IMG/VR virus record: IMGVR_UViG_3300030108_003783
Location: 1 to 64,000 of that record
DNA from: a virus
Reading direction: 5' to 3' (one strand)
DNA length: 64,000 nt
The notes below the pieces were generated by a model, which was not told where the DNA came from, searched no databases, and saw nothing but the letters and a program-made list of their open reading frames with translations. The position numbers were made by a program, and so were the translations under genes. Positions 2,718 to 23,466 of the stretch are shown one piece after another. Position 1 is the first letter of the stretch, and the number at the start of each line of letters is the position of its first letter.

Positions 2718-4292
2718 ATGAGTCAAAACCTTAAACAAATTATAGCAGCAGAATATAAAAAGTGTGCTACTAACCCAACGCACTTTATGAGAAAATATTC
2801 TTATATTCAACATCCAAATAGAGGAAAGATATTATTTGATTTATATCCTTTCCAAGAAAAGTCTTTGGATATAATAGCAGAAAGCGATTATAATATAATA
2901 CTTAAATCAAGACAATTAGGTATATCAACTTTAACTGCTGGATATGCTTTATGGTGCATGTTATTTAATGAAGACTTTAACGCATTGGTAATTGCAACAA
3001 AGCAAGATGTAGCAAAAAACTTAGTAACAAAAGTTAGAGTGATGCACCAATATTTACCTTCTTGGTTAAAGGGTGGAGTAGTAGAAGACAATAAACTTTC
3101 TTTGAGATTAAGTAATGGTTCTCAAATTAAAGCCATATCTTCATCTCCAGAAGCTGGTCGTTCTGAAGCACTATCTTTATTAGTAATGGATGAAGCAGCA
3201 TTTATTGACCATATAGATGATATATGGGCATCATCACAACAAACACTTGCAACTGGTGGTAAATGTATAGCATTATCAACACCAAATGGTATGGGTAACT
3301 GGTTTCATAAAACTTGGGTTAAAGCTGAAAATAATGAAAACAAATTCAATACGATAAGATTGCATTGGTCAGTACATCCAGATAGAGATGAAACTTGGAG
3401 ACAAGATCAAGACGAATTACTAGGTCCAAAGATGGCAGCACAAGAATGCGATTGTGATTTCCTATCTTCAGGTAATTCTGTTGTACCATCTGAGTTATTA
3501 CAATGGTATAAAGAAACTGTATGTCAAGATCCAGTAGAACAAAGAGGTCCTAATGGAGAATATTGGATATGGGAGTATCCTGATTATTCAAGAGATTATA
3601 TGGTTGTTGCCGATGTAGCTCGTGGAGATGGTGGAGATTATTCAACTTTTCAAATAATAGATGTTGAAACTGTTACACAAGTTGCAGAATACAAAGGACA
3701 AGCTGGAACAAAAGAATTTGGTAACATGTTAGTAAATGTTGCTACAGAATATAATGAAGCATTATTAGTTGTTGAAAATGCCAATGTAGGTTGGGCAGCA
3801 TTACAACCAGCAATAGATAGAAATTATAGAAACTTATATTATACATATAAACACGACGGCGTTACAGATGCAACAACACAATTAACTAAAGGGTATGATT
3901 TAAAAGACCGCTCTCAAATGACTCCTGGTTTTACAACATCATCTCGCACAAGACCCCTTTTAGTTTCAAAACTTGATATTTATTTTAGAGAGAAGTCCTG
4001 TGTAGTCAAGTCCAAAAGATTGATAGATGAACTATTAGTTTTTGTATGGAATGGCAATAGGCCAGAAGCTCAAAAGGGTTATAATGATGACTTGGTAATG
4101 GCTTTTGCAATATCTTTATTCGTTAGAGATCATGCTTTAAAATTAAGGAATGAAGGTATTGAATTAAATAGATTAGCACTAAACAATTTTGAAAGGGGTA
4201 GTGGTATATATAACAAAAGTAATCTTCCTAATGATGGCTGGACAATGAAAACTGGAAATGATGAAGAAGATTTAACTTGGCTTTTACGATAG
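2718..4292 (+). CDS. terL: terminase large subunit (gp17-like packaging ATPase-nuclease)
   Basis: A 524-residue protein of normal length for the family. The N-terminal ATPase has a Walker A-like SRQLGIST at residues 64-71 and Walker B LLVMDEAA at 154-161. A coupling-type motif (LSTPNG) follows. The RNase H-fold nuclease starts near residue 297 with VVADVARGDGGDYST, whose first aspartate is metal-binding, and continues to NDDLVMA near the C-terminus. It pumps DNA into proheads through the portal encoded next and cuts concatemers. Confidence 0.96.
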   Translation: MSQNLKQIIAAEYKKCATNPTHFMRKYSYIQHPNRGKILFDLYPFQEKSLDIIAESDYNIILKSRQLGISTLTAGYALWCMLFNEDFNALVIATKQDVAKNLVTKVRVMHQYLPSWLKGGVVEDNKLSLRLSNGSQIKAISSSPEAGRSEALSLLVMDEAAFIDHIDDIWASSQQTLATGGKCIALSTPNGMGNWFHKTWVKAENNENKFNTIRLHWSVHPDRDETWRQDQDELLGPKMAAQECDCDFLSSGNSVVPSELLQWYKETVCQDPVEQRGPNGEYWIWEYPDYSRDYMVVADVARGDGGDYSTFQIIDVETVTQVAEYKGQAGTKEFGNMLVNVATEYNEALLVVENANVGWAALQPAIDRNYRNLYYTYKHDGVTDATTQLTKGYDLKDRSQMTPGFTTSSRTRPLLVSKLDIYFREKSCVVKSKRLIDELLVFVWNGNRPEAQKGYNDDLVMAFAISLFVRDHALKLRNEGIELNRLALNNFERGSGIYNKSNLPNDGWTMKTGNDEEDLTWLLR

Positions 4293-16934: not shown

Positions 16935-18713
16935 ATGGCAGAAAAAATAGTCAGTCCTGGTGTATTTACCAGAGAAAATGATCTTTCATTTGTACCCCAG
17001 GGTGTAGCTGAGATTGGCGCTGCAATTGTAGGACCAACAGTAAAAGGGCCAGCTTTAGTACCAACTGTGGTTTCTAGCTTTGGCGAATATTCAACAATAT
17101 TCGGTACTACTTTCAACAGTGGTTCAGATCAGTATGAGTATTTAACATCCTTAGCAGCAGAACAATATTTGCAAAATGCTGGACAATTAACAGTAGTAAG
17201 AATTTTATCAGGAAGTTTTTCTAACGCAACTTCAAACTTCTTAGATAAATCATTCGTTCCTACATCAGAATCTAATGCACAATCAACAAGTACTAACCAT
17301 AGTTCTTCGTTTGCAATTAAAACTAGATTCGATGGAGCAATCTTAAACTCTACTGGTTCACAAGGAACAAATGGATTATTAACCAATGGAACAGAAAACA
17401 ATTATAGATGGGAAATTACCAACGTAAATAAAAATACTGGTACTTTTACATTATTAGTTAGACAAGGAAATGATACTCACACAAATAAGATTATTCTTGA
17501 AACATGGAATGATTTATCATTAGATCCTAAATCAAACAATTATATAAGAAGAGTAATTGGTGATCAAAGATATACTATAGCAGATTCAACAACTACAGAT
17601 CCTTTCTTACAATTAACTGGTGATTATGCAAATAAATCACAATTTATTTATGTAAGCTCAAATCAAACTACAATTGATTATTTAGATGAAAATGGAAACA
17701 CTGGTTCATTAACTAATGCTTTAGGATTATATACAGCATCATTACCAGCAGCAGTTTCTGGTACATTTAAAGCTGGATCTGATGGAGCAGTTAAAGCAGC
17801 ACCAAAATTCTTTGATAATATAGCAAATGGAAATGCACAAGGATATGATCCAGATCAAGATGGTAATACATACCAAACAGCATTTAGATTATTAAAGAAT
17901 CAAGATCAATACGATGTAAATATGATCCTAGCTCCAGGTATAATACAACAAAATGATTCAGCAACTACAACTTTATTAAAAGAAGTTTGTGAAGCTAGAG
18001 GAGATGCTTTCTTTATAGTTGATCCAGTAAATCATAATACAACTTCATTAGCAACTGTAACAGGAGTAACAGAACAATTGATTACTTCATACGGAGCTAT
18101 GTATTGGCCATGGGTTAAGATCTTCGCTTCTAGATTAGGAAAGAATGTTTGGGTACCACCATCAGTAGTAATGGGAGGAGTAATTGCTTTCAATGATAAA
18201 GTAGCTGCAGAATGGTTCGCACCAGCAGGTTTAAATAGAGGAGGAATCGGAGCTGCAATTCAAGCAGAAAGAGGATTAACTCATGCAAACAGAGATACTT
18301 TATACGAATCAAGAATTAATCCACTAGCAACATTCCCAGGTCAAGGGGTTTGTGTTTGGGGACAAAAAACTCTACAAAAAAGACCAACAGCTTTAGATAG
18401 AGTTAATGTTAGAAGATTATTGATTAACCTTAAGAAATTTATTGCATCTACAACTAAGTTCTTAGTATTTGAAAACAATACTTCAACTACAAGAAATAGA
18501 TTCTTAAGTACAGTTAATCCGTATATGGAACAAGTACAACAAAACCAAGGTCTATTTGCTTTCAGGGTTATTATGGATGAATCTAATAATACACCAGATG
18601 TAATTGACAGAAATCAAATGAAAGGTGAAATATTTATTCAACCAGCAAAAGCTGCAGAATTTATAATAGTAGACTTTAATATTATGCCAACCGGAGCAAC
18701 CTTCGGGGAATAA
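16935..18713 (+). CDS. gp18: tail sheath protein (gp18-like)
   Basis: A 592-residue contractile sheath protein. The N-terminus has the typical SPGVFTRENDLSFVPQGV and IGAAIVGPTVKGPA stretches. The conserved core is in the C-terminal half: YGAMYWPWVKIFA, WVPPSVVMGGVIA, INPLATFPGQGVCVWGQKTL, DRVNVRRLL. The variable middle domain spans about residues 90-300. It is paired with the tube gene 25 bases downstream. Confidence 0.95.
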   Translation: MAEKIVSPGVFTRENDLSFVPQGVAEIGAAIVGPTVKGPALVPTVVSSFGEYSTIFGTTFNSGSDQYEYLTSLAAEQYLQNAGQLTVVRILSGSFSNATSNFLDKSFVPTSESNAQSTSTNHSSSFAIKTRFDGAILNSTGSQGTNGLLTNGTENNYRWEITNVNKNTGTFTLLVRQGNDTHTNKIILETWNDLSLDPKSNNYIRRVIGDQRYTIADSTTTDPFLQLTGDYANKSQFIYVSSNQTTIDYLDENGNTGSLTNALGLYTASLPAAVSGTFKAGSDGAVKAAPKFFDNIANGNAQGYDPDQDGNTYQTAFRLLKNQDQYDVNMILAPGIIQQNDSATTTLLKEVCEARGDAFFIVDPVNHNTTSLATVTGVTEQLITSYGAMYWPWVKIFASRLGKNVWVPPSVVMGGVIAFNDKVAAEWFAPAGLNRGGIGAAIQAERGLTHANRDTLYESRINPLATFPGQGVCVWGQKTLQKRPTALDRVNVRRLLINLKKFIASTTKFLVFENNTSTTRNRFLSTVNPYMEQVQQNQGLFAFRVIMDESNNTPDVIDRNQMKGEIFIQPAKAAEFIIVDFNIMPTGATFGE

Positions 18714-18738: not shown

Positions 18739-19227
18739 ATGGCTAATTTAATAGACCCAAATGAAATGATGTTTACTTCCTTTCAACCAAAGGTAGCTAA
18801 CAGGTATGTAATGTATATAGACGGGATTCCTTCTTTTTTAATTAAGAAAGCTGCAAGACCATCTGTTAAATTTAATACTATTACTATGGATCACATGAAT
18901 ACACAAAGAAAGATTCAAGGTAAAGCTTCTTGGGATGATATCACAGTAACACTCTATGATCCAATCGTTCCTTCAGGTGCACAAGCAACTATGGAATGGG
19001 TAAGACTTGGATATGAGTCTGTAACTGGTAGAGCAGGATATTCAGATTTTTACAAGAAAGATATTGTATTCAACGTATTAGGTCCAGTAGGTGATAAAGT
19101 TGAAGAATGGACATTAAAGGGTGCATTCGTAACTTCAGCAGGTTTTGGAGAGATGGATTGGTCATCTGATACTCCAATGGAAATATCTATTGGTATTGCA
19201 TACGATTACGCAATATTACAATACTAA
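18739..19227 (+). CDS. gp19: tail tube protein (gp19-like)
   Basis: A 162-residue protein of normal gp19 length, with MMFTSFQPKVANRYVMYIDG, ASWDDITVTLYDPI and the closing MEISIGIAYDYAILQY. It polymerises into the inner tail tube under the sheath. AGAGGAG precedes the ATG, and a terminator follows 21 bases after the stop. Confidence 0.95.
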   Translation: MANLIDPNEMMFTSFQPKVANRYVMYIDGIPSFLIKKAARPSVKFNTITMDHMNTQRKIQGKASWDDITVTLYDPIVPSGAQATMEWVRLGYESVTGRAGYSDFYKKDIVFNVLGPVGDKVEEWTLKGAFVTSAGFGEMDWSSDTPMEISIGIAYDYAILQY

Positions 19228-19332: not shown

Positions 19333-20217
19333 ATGAGCGGAAAACCAACAAGACTGTCGGATCAAGAATTAAAAGATCAATTAATTGATAAGGCAAATTT
19401 TCAAGAAAAAACAGAAATAGTAAAAGACAATAAATTTCCAACTGAAATTATTGACTTGCCTTCTAAAGGTATACCATATCCAGAAGATCATCCATTATCT
19501 TCAGGAAAGATTGAAATGAAATATATGACTGCTAAAGAAGAAGATATTTTAACAACTCAATCTTATATTACACAAGGAACTGTATTAGATAAATTATTTA
19601 AAGCATTGATTATTTCTAATGGTGAAGGAAAACAAGTAAAATATAATGATATTTTAGTTGGAGATAAAAATGCAGTAATGATTGCTGCAAGAGTATTAAG
19701 TTATGGTAAAGATTATGCCATATCTATTCCAGACCCATTTAATGCTGGTGAACCTCAAGAAGAAACTATAGATCTTACAAAGATAGATCATTTACCTTTG
19801 CACGAAGAAATTACAAAGTTTCCAAACCACTCAGAGTTTGAATTTGAATTACCAGTATCAAAGAAAAGAGTTACTTTTAAATTAATGACTCATGGTACAG
19901 AGAAAAAAATAGATTACGCTTTAAAGGATTTAAAAAAGCAACAAAAAAGAATTAAAGATGACGTAGACAGAACAATGTCTACAAGATTGAAACATATCAT
20001 CACAGCTGTAGACGGTGAAAAAGATAGAAAAATAATTGATGATTTTGTAGATAATCATATGTTAGCTTTAGATTCTAGAGGCTTTAGAAATTATTTAAAG
20101 TCAGTACAACCAGATGTAGATCTAACCTATCAGTTTATATCCAATGAAACTGGAGATGAAAGGGAGGTGGAGATACCCATTGAAGTGAGCTTTTTTTGGC
20201 CTGACTCCAAAATATAA
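19333..20217 (+). CDS. gp26: baseplate hub assembly protein / tail chaperone (gp26-like)
   Basis: A 294-residue member of the T4 baseplate gp26 family: FPTEIIDLPSKGIPYPEDHPL, then YMTAKEEDILTTQSYI, and a C-terminal PIEVSFFWPDSKI. It lies between the tube and tape measure genes, the position of tail-assembly chaperones in other tailed phages. Its last codons contain AGC followed by seven T residues, where a frameshift would join it to the gp51-like frame. Confidence 0.85.
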   Translation: MSGKPTRLSDQELKDQLIDKANFQEKTEIVKDNKFPTEIIDLPSKGIPYPEDHPLSSGKIEMKYMTAKEEDILTTQSYITQGTVLDKLFKALIISNGEGKQVKYNDILVGDKNAVMIAARVLSYGKDYAISIPDPFNAGEPQEETIDLTKIDHLPLHEEITKFPNHSEFEFELPVSKKRVTFKLMTHGTEKKIDYALKDLKKQQKRIKDDVDRTMSTRLKHIITAVDGEKDRKIIDDFVDNHMLALDSRGFRNYLKSVQPDVDLTYQFISNETGDEREVEIPIEVSFFWPDSKI

Positions 20218-20443
20218 ACAAGATTTACATTCAACCATATTTTTATTGCTGTATAAAGTACCAGGCTTTACTCATGACGATTTATACAATATGCCAATCT
20301 GGCTTAGAATATATTATTTAAAAGAATATAAAGAATGGAAAAAAGCTGAAAATGAAAATGCAAGCGGTCAAGAATCTGCAGATCAAGGACAAGAAGCAGC
20401 ATATCAACAGTACTTAAAAACACGTCAAAACAATCCTAGCTAG
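20189..20443 (+). CDS. gp51: gp51-like hub assembly protein, frameshift product of the gp26 gene
   Basis: The frame opens after a TGA at 20186-20188 and reads FFGLTPKYKQDLHSTIFLLL, then GFTHDDLYNMPIWLRIYYLK, the signature I associate with gp51-like proteins. There is no ATG or GTG start before that conserved sequence; a TTG at 20246 would delete it. The overlap with gp26 holds the run TTTTTTT at 20191-20197. A +1 (or -2) slip there would give SFF-GLTP. The C-terminus is Gln/Ala-rich. The position before the tape measure fits a tail-chaperone extension. Confidence 0.7.
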   Translation, partial: AFFGLTPKYKQDLHSTIFLLLYKVPGFTHDDLYNMPIWLRIYYLKEYKEWKKAENENASGQESADQGQEAAYQQYLKTRQNNPS

Positions 20444-20484: not shown

Positions 20485-20694
20485 ATGAAAGAAAAAAATC
20501 AAATAGACGAAGGTTTATTTAGTAAAACAATAGGCAGAGCTTTATTGTTCTTATCTGGTGCAGGTAAAGATTATAAAAAATTAAAGAAAAATATAAATGA
20601 TCCTGTATACAAAAGAAAGATGAAAGATCTAGAAGACAGTCTAAAAACAGTAGCACAAAAATTTGATGATATAGATAAAATGTACGGAAGATAA
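20485..20694 (+). CDS. small helical protein upstream of tape measure
   Basis: A 69-residue protein (MKEKNQIDE-GLFSKTIGRA, then KDLEDSLKTVAQKFDDIDKM) with a C-terminal coiled coil. IDE-G near the start resembles a gp21 site. The AGGAG is part of the inverted repeat described for this leader. Family not recognised; its position suggests a tail-assembly accessory role. Confidence 0.6.
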   Translation: MKEKNQIDEGLFSKTIGRALLFLSGAGKDYKKLKKNINDPVYKRKMKDLEDSLKTVAQKFDDIDKMYGR

Positions 20695-20700
20695 TAATCT

Positions 20701-23466
20701 ATGGGGCTAAAAGACGAATTAAGAGCTCGGAAAGAGATACTACAAGCAGCAAGAGATGAAGTATCTGTTCAACAACAGAAACTTGATAACTTGATTGCTC
20801 AACTTGGGACTATGGATAAAATGGACCCAAAGTTCCAAGCTATGCAAAATAAAGCAACGGCTATGTCTAATGCCATTGCTGATGCAACAAGAAATGCTAA
20901 TGAATTAGCTAGTGAAGTTGGAAAAACTGAAGATTCTATTTCAAAAGCAGAAGACAGATTGCAATCCTTTTCAGATAAAGTACAAGGCATAGTTTCTAAG
21001 GTTCCTATAATAGGTGAATCATTTGCAAACGGAATACAAACAGCTACTGATAAAGCAAAAATAATGATGGACAGATGGTTGAAAGAAACTGATGGAAGTT
21101 GGAGAAGAACATTTAAAATAATGGGTGCTGTAACTGCTGGTTTATTATTAGGAGGATTATTTGCTGCTTGGAAATTGTTTCAATCTTTATTAAGTACATC
21201 TAATGAAACAATGATGGAATTCTCTACTGCAATGACTGATACTGCAAGAACATTGCAAATGTCTAAAAAAGACGTAAGAGATATTGGAGCTGGAGTTGGA
21301 GACTGGGTTAGATACGGTTCAGGTTGGGCATCAGCTGTGGCACAAATTCGTGATGATATGGGATTCATTCCTAAATTAACAGAAAAAGAAAATAACTTGG
21401 TTGCTAAGCTTGCAACTAATGCAGGATTAGGTGCTGATCAAATAGCAAACATGTACAGACAATCTCAAAACTTAGGAATGGAATTAGATGTATATGTTAA
21501 AAATCAACAAAAGAAAATATTACAATTAAATCAAGAAAATGGAACATTCTTTACACAAGCAGAAATAATAAAAGAAATAGCTGGTGCTTCTGATGAAACA
21601 TTAGCAATGTTTGGTAAACAAAATCAAGAATTAGAAAAGCAAGTTTTAATTGGTAAAAAAATAGGTTTAAATTTAAATCAACAAGCTTCTATAGCAAAAT
21701 CCTTATTAGATATTGAATCTAGTATAGAAGCAGAAATGGAAGCTAGAGTTTTAACAGGAAAAGAAATAAACTTTGATAAAGCAAGAGAATTAGCATTAAA
21801 TGGTGATATCTCTGGAGCTTCCGAAGAGATAATGGGTCAACTAGGTGGAATAGACGAATTCAATAAAATGAATATCGTACAAAAAGAAGCTATTGCAAAA
21901 GCAGCAGGATTAGAAGTTGGTCAATTGCAAAAATCATTAGAAATGCAAGCAGGATTAGCTGATCAAGCTAATGTTGGTGGGGCAGCTGGAGCAGGGGGAG
22001 CAGGAGTAGCAGGAGCTGCAAGTAATGCAGATTTAGCAGCAGCCGATGAAGCAAGAAGAAGAAAGTGGGGAGGAGTTTTAATGCCAATAGCTAAAGCTCT
22101 TAGATCTTTAAGAATTGCAATAGAAGATAAATTATATACATGGTTAACAGGACCAGATGGTTCTGCTTTCATAACTGGAGTTGCAAATTCAATTGGTGAA
22201 GTAGCAAATTGGATTGCAACCGGTACAGCACCTTCATGGTTTACAAAATTTGAAACCGATTATATACAACCTATCAAAACTAAGCTTGAAGAATGGACAG
22301 CATGGATAGCTGAAAACCCGTTAACTTCTATTGGTATAGCTTTAGGTGGTACAGTTGGTATTACCCAATTAGGAGAATACCTAGGAATACTATCAGACAA
22401 AGACAGAGATGGAACATCTAAATCTAGAGCATTATGGGTTAGACAAACAGATGGTGTATTCGGAGATATATTAGGTTCACTTGGTGGAAGAAAAGGTGGA
22501 TTAGGAAGATTTGGAAGAGCATTTAAGAAGGGAGGCTTTAAAGGTTTAGGTAAATCTTTATTTAGAGCATCAGGGTTAAAAGGGATAACAAAAAGTTTAA
22601 AGGGTGGAATAAAATCTTTAAGTGGATTAGCTAGTAAATTAGGGGGATTTTTAAAGAAAAGCTTTGCTAAAAAGAAACCTAAGGTTAAAGCAAAGAAAGG
22701 TGGATTATTTAGTAGAATAGGTGGAGCAATAAAGAAAGGAGTTAGCAAAGCAGTAAAAACTGTTAAGAAAGGTGCTTCAGCAGTAAAGAAAGGAGCATCC
22801 AAAGGTATTCAATTTGTAAAGAAAACTGGATCTAAAATAATATCAGCAGTTAATCCTATACCAAAACTTAAAAAAGGATTAACTAGTAAAGCTGGAGCTT
22901 TCGTAAAGAAAGCAGCTAAAGGAGTTGGAAAGATAGGTGGAAAAGTAGTTAAGGGTGGTTTAGTTGGAGCATTATTTAATGCTGCTGCTTTAGCATCAAT
23001 CTTATCTTCTGATATGCCAGCAATGGATAAAGCAAAAGAAGTTGTAAGAACAGGAGCTGGTATCTTAGGTGGAGCTCTTGGTTCTATAGCTGGTTCAATA
23101 ATTCCAGTAGTTGGTACATTAGGTGGAGGTATTCTTGGAGGTTTAGTTGGAGACTTGATTGGTAGTACACCAGCTATACAAAATGCACTTGCTCCCCCAC
23201 TAGCAGGTTTATTTAAAGGAGAAGAAGTAGAAGACTTTATATTATCAGATAGAGGTTTAATTAAATTTAGAAAAGACGATTTAGTTATAGGTGGAACAAG
23301 ATTAAACGAGGGCTTAGGAACTGGTGATAATAAAGCTTTAGATAGATTAGTAGAATTAATGGAAAAACTAATCAAAGTAACAATTCAAGATAGAGTAATG
23401 TCAGTAGACGGTAAAGAGTTAGCAACAGCTTTAGCTGAAACAGAAAATTATAGAGGGGTAGCATAA
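20701..23466 (+). CDS. gp29: tail tape measure protein
   Basis: A 921-residue protein. It starts with a coiled coil (residues 1-100), then a hydrophobic segment (VTAGLLLGGLFAAWKLF, about 141-157), a long helical middle, and a very basic Gly/Lys-rich region (about 600-760, with KKGASAVKKGASKG). Near the end is a glycine-rich hydrophobic stretch (about 780-825). This is the usual tape measure design: it sets tail length and may form a membrane channel on ejection. At about 0.15 nm per residue the tail would be near 140 nm (inference). The assignment rests on length, composition and position after the gp26/gp51 chaperones. Confidence 0.85.
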   Translation: MGLKDELRARKEILQAARDEVSVQQQKLDNLIAQLGTMDKMDPKFQAMQNKATAMSNAIADATRNANELASEVGKTEDSISKAEDRLQSFSDKVQGIVSKVPIIGESFANGIQTATDKAKIMMDRWLKETDGSWRRTFKIMGAVTAGLLLGGLFAAWKLFQSLLSTSNETMMEFSTAMTDTARTLQMSKKDVRDIGAGVGDWVRYGSGWASAVAQIRDDMGFIPKLTEKENNLVAKLATNAGLGADQIANMYRQSQNLGMELDVYVKNQQKKILQLNQENGTFFTQAEIIKEIAGASDETLAMFGKQNQELEKQVLIGKKIGLNLNQQASIAKSLLDIESSIEAEMEARVLTGKEINFDKARELALNGDISGASEEIMGQLGGIDEFNKMNIVQKEAIAKAAGLEVGQLQKSLEMQAGLADQANVGGAAGAGGAGVAGAASNADLAAADEARRRKWGGVLMPIAKALRSLRIAIEDKLYTWLTGPDGSAFITGVANSIGEVANWIATGTAPSWFTKFETDYIQPIKTKLEEWTAWIAENPLTSIGIALGGTVGITQLGEYLGILSDKDRDGTSKSRALWVRQTDGVFGDILGSLGGRKGGLGRFGRAFKKGGFKGLGKSLFRASGLKGITKSLKGGIKSLSGLASKLGGFLKKSFAKKKPKVKAKKGGLFSRIGGAIKKGVSKAVKTVKKGASAVKKGASKGIQFVKKTGSKIISAVNPIPKLKKGLTSKAGAFVKKAAKGVGKIGGKVVKGGLVGALFNAAALASILSSDMPAMDKAKEVVRTGAGILGGALGSIAGSIIPVVGTLGGGILGGLVGDLIGSTPAIQNALAPPLAGLFKGEEVEDFILSDRGLIKFRKDDLVIGGTRLNEGLGTGDNKALDRLVELMEKLIKVTIQDRVMSVDGKELATALAETENYRGVA

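What the first reader, a model, noticed from the sequence alone, without database searches (positions are those of the whole stretch)
20180..20260. Probable programmed frameshift joining gp26 and gp51 homologues
The gp51-like conserved sequence (FFGLTPKYKQDL onward) has no ATG/GTG/TTG start in its frame before position 20246 and begins inside the last codons of gp26, at AGC TTT TTT TGG. Slipping +1 (or -2) on the seven T residues joins SFF to GLTP. Tail-assembly chaperones located between tube and tape measure use frameshifts in many tailed phages; I do not know of a report for the T4 gp26/gp51 pair.
Basis: partly seen in the sequence, partly recalled or inferred. Interest (0 to 1): 0.8.

Follow-up and report, generated by a model that had tools for sequence, protein, structure and literature searches.

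The report
+1 ribosomal frameshift makes tail chaperone
In this T4-related phage and well over a hundred relatives, the ribosome almost certainly slips forward one base at a conserved run of Ts, so that a few copies of a tail-building helper protein (gp26) gain an extra domain (gp51-like) that has no start signal of its own; this trick is known from other tailed phages, but T4 has been described as the exception.

Summary
gp26 (19333-20217) ends AGC TTT TTT TGG CCT GAC TCC AAA ATA TAA. The gp51-like ORF lies in the +1 frame, is blocked upstream by TGA (20186-20188), and has no ATG/GTG/TTG before 20246. Relatives settle the interpretation. In 143 distinct contexts from viral contigs, MAG contigs and isolate phages, the second ORF is in the +1 frame, overlaps the end of gp26 and starts at the same residue. 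Of these, 63 have no start codon in that frame upstream. The two Phe codons are the least synonymously variable of 70 conserved codons. Every site in the set fits "YUU_Y" (UUU_U 131, UUU_C 7, CUU_U 5), so the P-site tRNA re-pairs on UUY; -2 slipping fails in 11, and transcript slippage fails where there is no T-run. Position (tube - gp26 - T - tape measure), fold (HK97 tail assembly chaperone is the top, though modest, PDB match; T4-like hub chaperones in BFVD) and domain split all fit the lambda G/GT arrangement. T4 itself has 26 and 51 divergent with their own starts. So this is a +1 version of the known tail-chaperone frameshift, conserved across a large T4-related lineage. No product has been measured.

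The parts
19333..20217 (+). gp26-like tail assembly chaperone G form (294 aa, zero-frame product)
   Evidence: phrog_150 baseplate hub E 1.4e-9; AF2 model pLDDT 87.6; BFVD matches to T4-like baseplate hub proteins down to E 1e-17; HK97 tail assembly chaperone best PDB row, Z 5.3
20191..20199 (+). slippery site T7-GG: E/P/A codons TTT TTT_TGG; P-site codon 20194-20196 re-pairs at 20195-20197
   Evidence: conserved at nucleotide level in relatives
20198..20443 (+). T domain (gp51-like) coding sequence in the +1 frame, read only after the shift; GLTPKYKQDL... stop 20441-20443
   Evidence: AF2 helical model pLDDT 82
20186..20188 (+). TGA that closes the +1 frame just upstream, so no upstream start can serve the T domain
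20200..20217 (+). short zero-frame tail of gp26 after the slip site (PDSKI + stop)
   Evidence: the gp26 stop follows 4-8 codons past the P-site codon in 141 of 143 contexts and 11 in two
18739..19227 (+). tail tube protein (gp19-like), upstream neighbour
   Evidence: phrog_4542 E 3.9e-27; PF06841 E 1.1e-4, below its cut-off
16935..18713 (+). tail sheath protein
   Evidence: phrog_23 E 8e-84
20485..20694 (+). small ORF between T domain and tape measure, also present in Mel-JY01 and others; role unknown
20701..23466 (+). probable tape measure protein (921 aa)
   Evidence: same position annotated tail tape measure in phages immuto and SP-15

Best explanation
The locus encodes a two-form tail assembly chaperone. 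Most ribosomes read gp26 to its stop (G form, 294 aa). A minority reach UUU UUU UGG, and peptidyl-tRNA-Phe in the P site slips +1 from UUU to the overlapping UUU while the A site waits on UGG. They then read GGC CUG ACU..., giving gp26(1-288)-GLTPKYKQDL..., a G-T fusion of about 370 aa. By analogy with lambda gpG/gpGT, G would coat the tape measure protein and the scarce GT would recruit tail tube subunits. Shown by sequence: overlap, missing start, conserved shifty site, frame relation, gene order, fold. Inferred: that the shift occurs, its efficiency, its +1 direction in this phage, and the chaperone role.
For: T ORF in the +1 frame, joined at the same residue, in 143 distinct contexts, three more read by hand. 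63 of 143 have no ATG/GTG/TTG in that frame upstream; only 18 have any start with an SD-like motif. Both Phe codons are TTT in 65/65 contexts, the lowest synonymous entropy of 70 conserved codons, against 12-16% TTC at other conserved Phe columns. P-site variants UUU_U, UUU_C and CUU_U all land on UUY; CUU_U is the prfB codon context, and a TTT-CGC site is proposed for +1 in HF1-group halovirus tail chaperones (PMC7230728). The second viral scan used patterns that exclude the site. Isolate phages Mel-JY01, immuto, SP-15 and GXN1 show the same layout. HK97 tail assembly chaperone is the top PDB structure, Z 5.3, 81 residues, 4.1 A, next row 2.9.
Against: No protein or ribosome-profiling data. 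The codon before the P site is TTT in 136 of 143 contexts, more than P-site slipping alone demands. No stimulator common to all: SD-like motifs sit 33-40 nt upstream, and a 3' hairpin exists only in a subset that excludes the window. Contexts are phylogenetically related, so counts are not independent, and the 143 were selected by the YTT_Y rule. HK97 Z 5.3 is modest.
Confidence: 0.9

Rival explanations
1. -2 ribosomal frameshift on the T7 run, adding one more Phe (SFFFGLTP), as in phage Mu.
For: Gives the same final frame; 132 of 143 sites let a P-site Phe tRNA re-pair two bases back, and the first Phe codon is nearly invariant TTT. -2 is used by Mu (PMC5009743).
Against: In 11 contexts the -2 landing codon is TTC under tRNA-Leu, or TCT or ACT under tRNA-Phe, while +1 always lands on UUY. 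One mechanism for the family is simpler.
Confidence: 0.1
2. Transcriptional slippage: RNA polymerase drops one U (or adds two) in the T7 run, so some mRNAs encode the fusion in frame.
For: A T7 homopolymer is present in most sites, 8 Ts in L057/L060.
Against: Sites TTT CTT TGG, TTC TTT TGG, TTC TTT CGT and AAC TTT CTA keep the arrangement with no run longer than four Ts.
Confidence: 0.04
3. The T domain is a separate protein started at a non-canonical codon or by termination-reinitiation at the gp26 stop.
For: S-PM2 gp51 has an ATG right after gp26, and one eCIS locus has a TGATG overlap (L191), so separate translation exists in distant relatives.
Against: The conserved T frame begins upstream of the gp26 stop, often with no start codon at all; it would not explain invariant TTT TTT codons.
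Confidence: 0.04
4. Homopolymer sequencing or assembly error splitting a single fused gene.
For: Metagenomic contig; a T7 run is error-prone.
Against: Same frame relation in over 140 distinct contexts and in isolate genomes, including sites with no homopolymer.
Confidence: 0.005

Closest known systems
lambda gpG/gpGT tail assembly chaperone frameshift and its homologues in long-tailed phages (Xu, Hendrix and Duda 2004; reviewed in PMC5009743)
   Same: [quoted passage not shown]
   Different: +1 rather than -1; a much longer G domain of the T4 gp26 type; no known common stimulator.
T4 gp26 and gp51 (baseplate hub proteins or assembly chaperones; TAC role argued by Vladimirov, Gautam and Davidson 2022)
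   Same: G domain belongs to the gp26-type fold family (phrog_150, BFVD); T domain resembles the cyanophage gp51.
   Different: In T4, 26 and 51 are divergent genes with own starts and gp51 is a 249-aa protein; no frameshift.
Cyanophage S-PM2 gp26/gp51
   Same: Adjacent gp26 and short gp51; gp26 ends ...SFFA.
   Different: gp51 is in the -1 frame with a possible U UUU UUC heptamer and also has an ATG.
Vandenendeviridae/Andersonviridae tail chaperone -1 frameshift at GTTTTT (PMC12846349)
   Same: Myovirus tail chaperone joined by a slip on a T-run.
   Different: -1 direction, other motif.
HF1-group halovirus tail chaperone, proposed +1 shift at TTT-CGC (PMC7230728)
   Same: [quoted passage not shown] SP-15-like and GXN1-like members here use UUU_CAC or UUU_CGU.
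   Different: Archaeal viruses; homology with this family not tested; the main site here is UUU_UGG.
Bacterial prfB (RF2) +1 site CUU_UGA
   Same: CUU_U or UUU_U P-site re-pairing onto UUU.
   Different: Here the A-site codon is sense (UGG), not stop, and no SD lies 3 nt upstream.

Membership tests
Frameshifted tail assembly chaperone (G/GT) module | Overlapping ORF pair between major tail or tube gene and tape measure gene | tested here: met
   Window order sheath-tube-gp26-T-small ORF-tape measure; same in Mel-JY01, immuto, SP-15
Frameshifted tail assembly chaperone (G/GT) module | Second ORF has no start of its own and is open through the overlap | tested here: met
   Window: TGA 20186, first TTG 20246; 63 of 143 contexts have no start upstream, 18 have one with an SD-like motif
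Frameshifted tail assembly chaperone (G/GT) module | Conserved slippery sequence under nucleotide-level selection | tested here: met
   TTT TTT 65/65, lowest synonymous entropy of 70 codons; YTT_Y rule
Frameshifted tail assembly chaperone (G/GT) module | G fold like known tail assembly chaperones | tested here: inconclusive
   HK97 TAC 2ob9 top row, Z 5.3 over 81 residues, 4.1 A, next row 2.9; not significant in Foldseek
Frameshifted tail assembly chaperone (G/GT) module | Both products made in a fixed ratio; bind tape measure; absent from virion | not testable with these tools
   Needs proteomics and a reporter
T4 gp26/gp51 family | G homologous to gp26 | tested here: met
   phrog_150 E 1.4e-9; BFVD T4-like baseplate hub matches E 1e-17 to 1e-4
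T4 gp26/gp51 family | T domain homologous to the gp51 C-terminus | tested here: inconclusive
   Cyanophage gp51 pairwise E 2.7e-6, Prob 88; T4 gp51 C-terminus only a weak local match; phrog_634 in 4 of 44, best E 0.006
T4 gp26/gp51 family | Separate genes with own start codons, as in T4 | tested here: not met
   T4: 26 on minus, 51 on plus strand; here overlapping, no start
prfB-type +1 frameshift | YUU_U P-site slip | tested here: met
   UUU_U or CUU_U in 136 of 143
prfB-type +1 frameshift | Stop codon in A site and SD 3 nt upstream | tested here: not met
   A-site UGG, UAC, CCC, CGU, CUA or CAC; SD-like motifs at -33 to -40, one at -28
DUF6760 (PF20546) | Passes the Pfam cut-off | tested here: not met
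   Window 16.3 bits against cut-off 27; 10 of 44 members match weakly, best E 3.3e-5

The most novel reading that the evidence does not exclude
Joining G and T at the end of a gp26-type chaperone may be ancestral to T4-type contractile tails and possibly related injection systems, and the way of joining has changed repeatedly: +1 (UUU_U, CUU_U, UUU_C) in this lineage, -1 in L129, a jumbo phage and perhaps cyanophages, in-frame fusion in some eCIS, and gene splitting and duplication in T4.
Probability: 0.4. Interest if true: 0.7.

Novelty: new variant of a known kind. Interest (0 to 1): 0.55.

Why it matters
The tail-chaperone frameshift was described as conserved in long-tailed phages "except T4" (PMC5009743). 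A large T4-related lineage uses it, in the rarer +1 direction, with a simple rule (YUU_Y) seen in natural variants. That makes T4 a likely secondary loss, gives isolated phages (immuto, SP-15, Mel-JY01) in which it can be tested, and shows that automatic annotation truncates, mis-starts or misses the T domain in these genomes.

Tried and rejected
A general 3' RNA structure was sought: weak overall (mean z about -0.6, not beyond control windows), real only in a subset (12 of 139 with a perfect 7-bp stem against 0.76 shuffled) that excludes the window. SD stimulator rejected: 33-40 nt upstream, in 35 of 66. PDB sequence searches found no relatives of G or T. T-domain fold searches gave nothing significant. 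A frameshift in eCIS DUF6760 loci was looked for and is mixed. Vladimirov 2022 is not held; it is known here only from its title and citing text.

Full report
WHAT IS IN THE WINDOW. gp26 (19333-20217) runs into AGC TTT TTT TGG CCT GAC TCC AAA ATA TAA. The second ORF is in the +1 frame: TGA 20186-20188, then GCT TTT TTT GGC CTG ACT... to a stop at 20441-20443, with no ATG/GTG/TTG before 20246. Neighbours: sheath 16935-18713 and tube 18739-19227 upstream; small ORF 20485-20694 and a 921-aa probable tape measure 20701-23466 downstream. TTTTTTTGG occurs once in the whole 133.7-kb record, whereas 3.4 are expected in the 64-kb window alone. Slippery strings are often avoided inside genes, so this fits a functional site.

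RELATIVES, CORE SET. Two viral-contig scans, the window's own copy and phage records gave 66 distinct contexts with the xTT TGG site: TTT TTT TGG in 64, CTT TTT TGG in one, TTT CTT TGG in one. The T ORF is in the +1 frame and overlaps gp26. 33 of 66 have no ATG/GTG/TTG in that frame upstream of the site, and an internal start would usually cost a third or more of the T domain. Among 70 codon columns with a conserved, synonymously variable amino acid, the two Phe codons at the site have zero synonymous entropy and are the two lowest, followed by the next Pro codon; other conserved Phe columns carry 12-16% TTC. The third positions of these Phe codons lie before the shift, so overlap coding does not explain their invariance. 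One of the six patterns of the first scan, FFWPDSKI, covered the site as degenerate protein; this does not bias TTT against TTC.

RELATIVES, WIDE SET. An alignment of diverged gp26 proteins was used to scan 84,980 genomes and the viral contigs, with patterns far from the site. In the combined set, 143 distinct contexts have the T ORF in the +1 frame with the site at the join. P-site codon and next base are TTT_T 131, TTT_C 7, CTT_T 5. The A-site codon is TGG 133, CCC 3, TAC 3, CGT 2, CTA 1, CAC 1. 63 of 143 have no start upstream in that frame and 18 have one with an SD-like motif. The 143 were classed by the YTT_Y rule, so that rule is partly by construction. Loci outside it were read by hand. 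L096, L108 and L112 also fit (+1 at TTT_CGT). L036/L172, L148 and L179 are cut by contig ends. L061 has a second gp26-like copy directly downstream. L129 and L091 carry T in the -1 frame.

MECHANISM. Every P-site variant re-pairs on UUY after +1. A -2 slip would land on TTC under tRNA-Leu (5), or on TCT (5) or ACT (1) under tRNA-Phe. Transcript slippage cannot act at sites with no T-run. I therefore favour +1, at about 0.85 given that a shift occurs. The near-invariant TTT before the P site is not explained by P-site slipping alone; an E-site effect or some -2 contribution in T7 members remains possible. A 7-bp hairpin with compensatory changes starts eight bases past the P-site codon in a subset (12 of 139 perfect against 0.76 shuffled; others at other registers). 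The window lacks it, so it is at most an accessory.

WHAT THE PROTEINS ARE. G models well (pLDDT 87.6). In BFVD it matches T4-like baseplate hub and hub-assembly proteins (E 1e-17 to 1e-4). Among solved structures the top row on VIA-align is the HK97 tail assembly chaperone (2ob9, Z 5.3, 81 residues, 4.1 A; next row 2.9), while Foldseek ranks it without significance. T is a small helical domain (pLDDT 82), resembling cyanophage gp51 (pairwise E 2.7e-6) and weakly DUF6760 (10 of 44 members, best E 3.3e-5). Homology to the T4 gp51 C-terminus itself was not established.

COMPARISON WITH WHAT IS KNOWN. The lambda-type G/GT frameshift is conserved among long-tailed phages "except T4", with -1, -2 or +1 used in different phages (PMC5009743). 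T4 26 and 51 are divergent genes with their own starts. Cyanophage gp51 is only about 20% of the length of other gp51 proteins and matches their C-terminal region (PMC3037559). Vladimirov et al. 2022, known here only by title and citations, argue for a mechanism other than frameshifting in T4-like phages; a citing paper attributes poly-T -1 signals in T4-like TAC genes to it (PMC12846349). A +1 shift at TTT-CGC is proposed for the HF1-group halovirus tail chaperone (PMC7230728). I found no report of the +1 gp26-T arrangement described here in the papers searched, but the key paper was not readable. Filed as a new variant of a known kind.

LIMITS. All evidence is comparative; no product has been seen. 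Contexts are related by descent. Shift efficiency, product ratio and chaperone function are inferred by analogy with lambda.

Noticed in passing
L129 (IMGVR 3300020442_002272), near 3140-3170: The site is TTC TTC TGG and the T domain lies in the -1 frame, with a canonical A AAT TTC heptamer at the join: an apparent switch of frameshift direction inside the family.
   Followed up: partly
L091 (LR756511, 595-kb phage) and S-PM2 (L095:5100-5364): T domain or gp51 in the -1 frame after GGG TTT TTC and TCT TTT TTC respectively; possible -1 frameshifts (S-PM2 gp51 also has an ATG).
   Followed up: partly
L187, L188, L189, L190, L191 (bacterial genomes): Loci that look like contractile injection systems carry a gp26-like ORF beside or fused to DUF6760: in-frame fusion in L188/L189, TGATG overlap in L191, no clear start in L187. 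DUF6760 may be the chaperone T domain of these systems.
   Followed up: partly
L167 and L177, just 3' of the slip site: Synonymous compensatory changes preserve a hairpin (GCCGAC..GTCGGC against GCGGAC..GTCCGC); a 7-bp hairpin with similar covariation is found in 12 further contexts (L144, L123, L165, L044 and others).
   Followed up: partly
L061:3801-3960: The first gp26 has lost its T domain (18 codons left) and a second gp26-like ORF follows directly: a tandem duplication, reminiscent of T4 having both gp26 and gp51.
   Followed up: no
L001-L035 group, 33-40 nt before the slip site: An AGGAG-like motif followed by an in-frame ATG in the gp26 frame (ERREM region) might start a short second G-frame product; found in 35 of 66 contexts.
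   Followed up: no
window 20485-20694: Small 69-aa ORF between the T domain and the tape measure, positionally kept in Mel-JY01 (71 aa); no family match above noise.
   Followed up: no
phage records MW353175, NC_031245, PP395634, PQ819873: Current annotation truncates (immuto, SP-15), mis-starts with TTG (Mel-JY01) or misses (GXN1) the T domain.
   Followed up: yes
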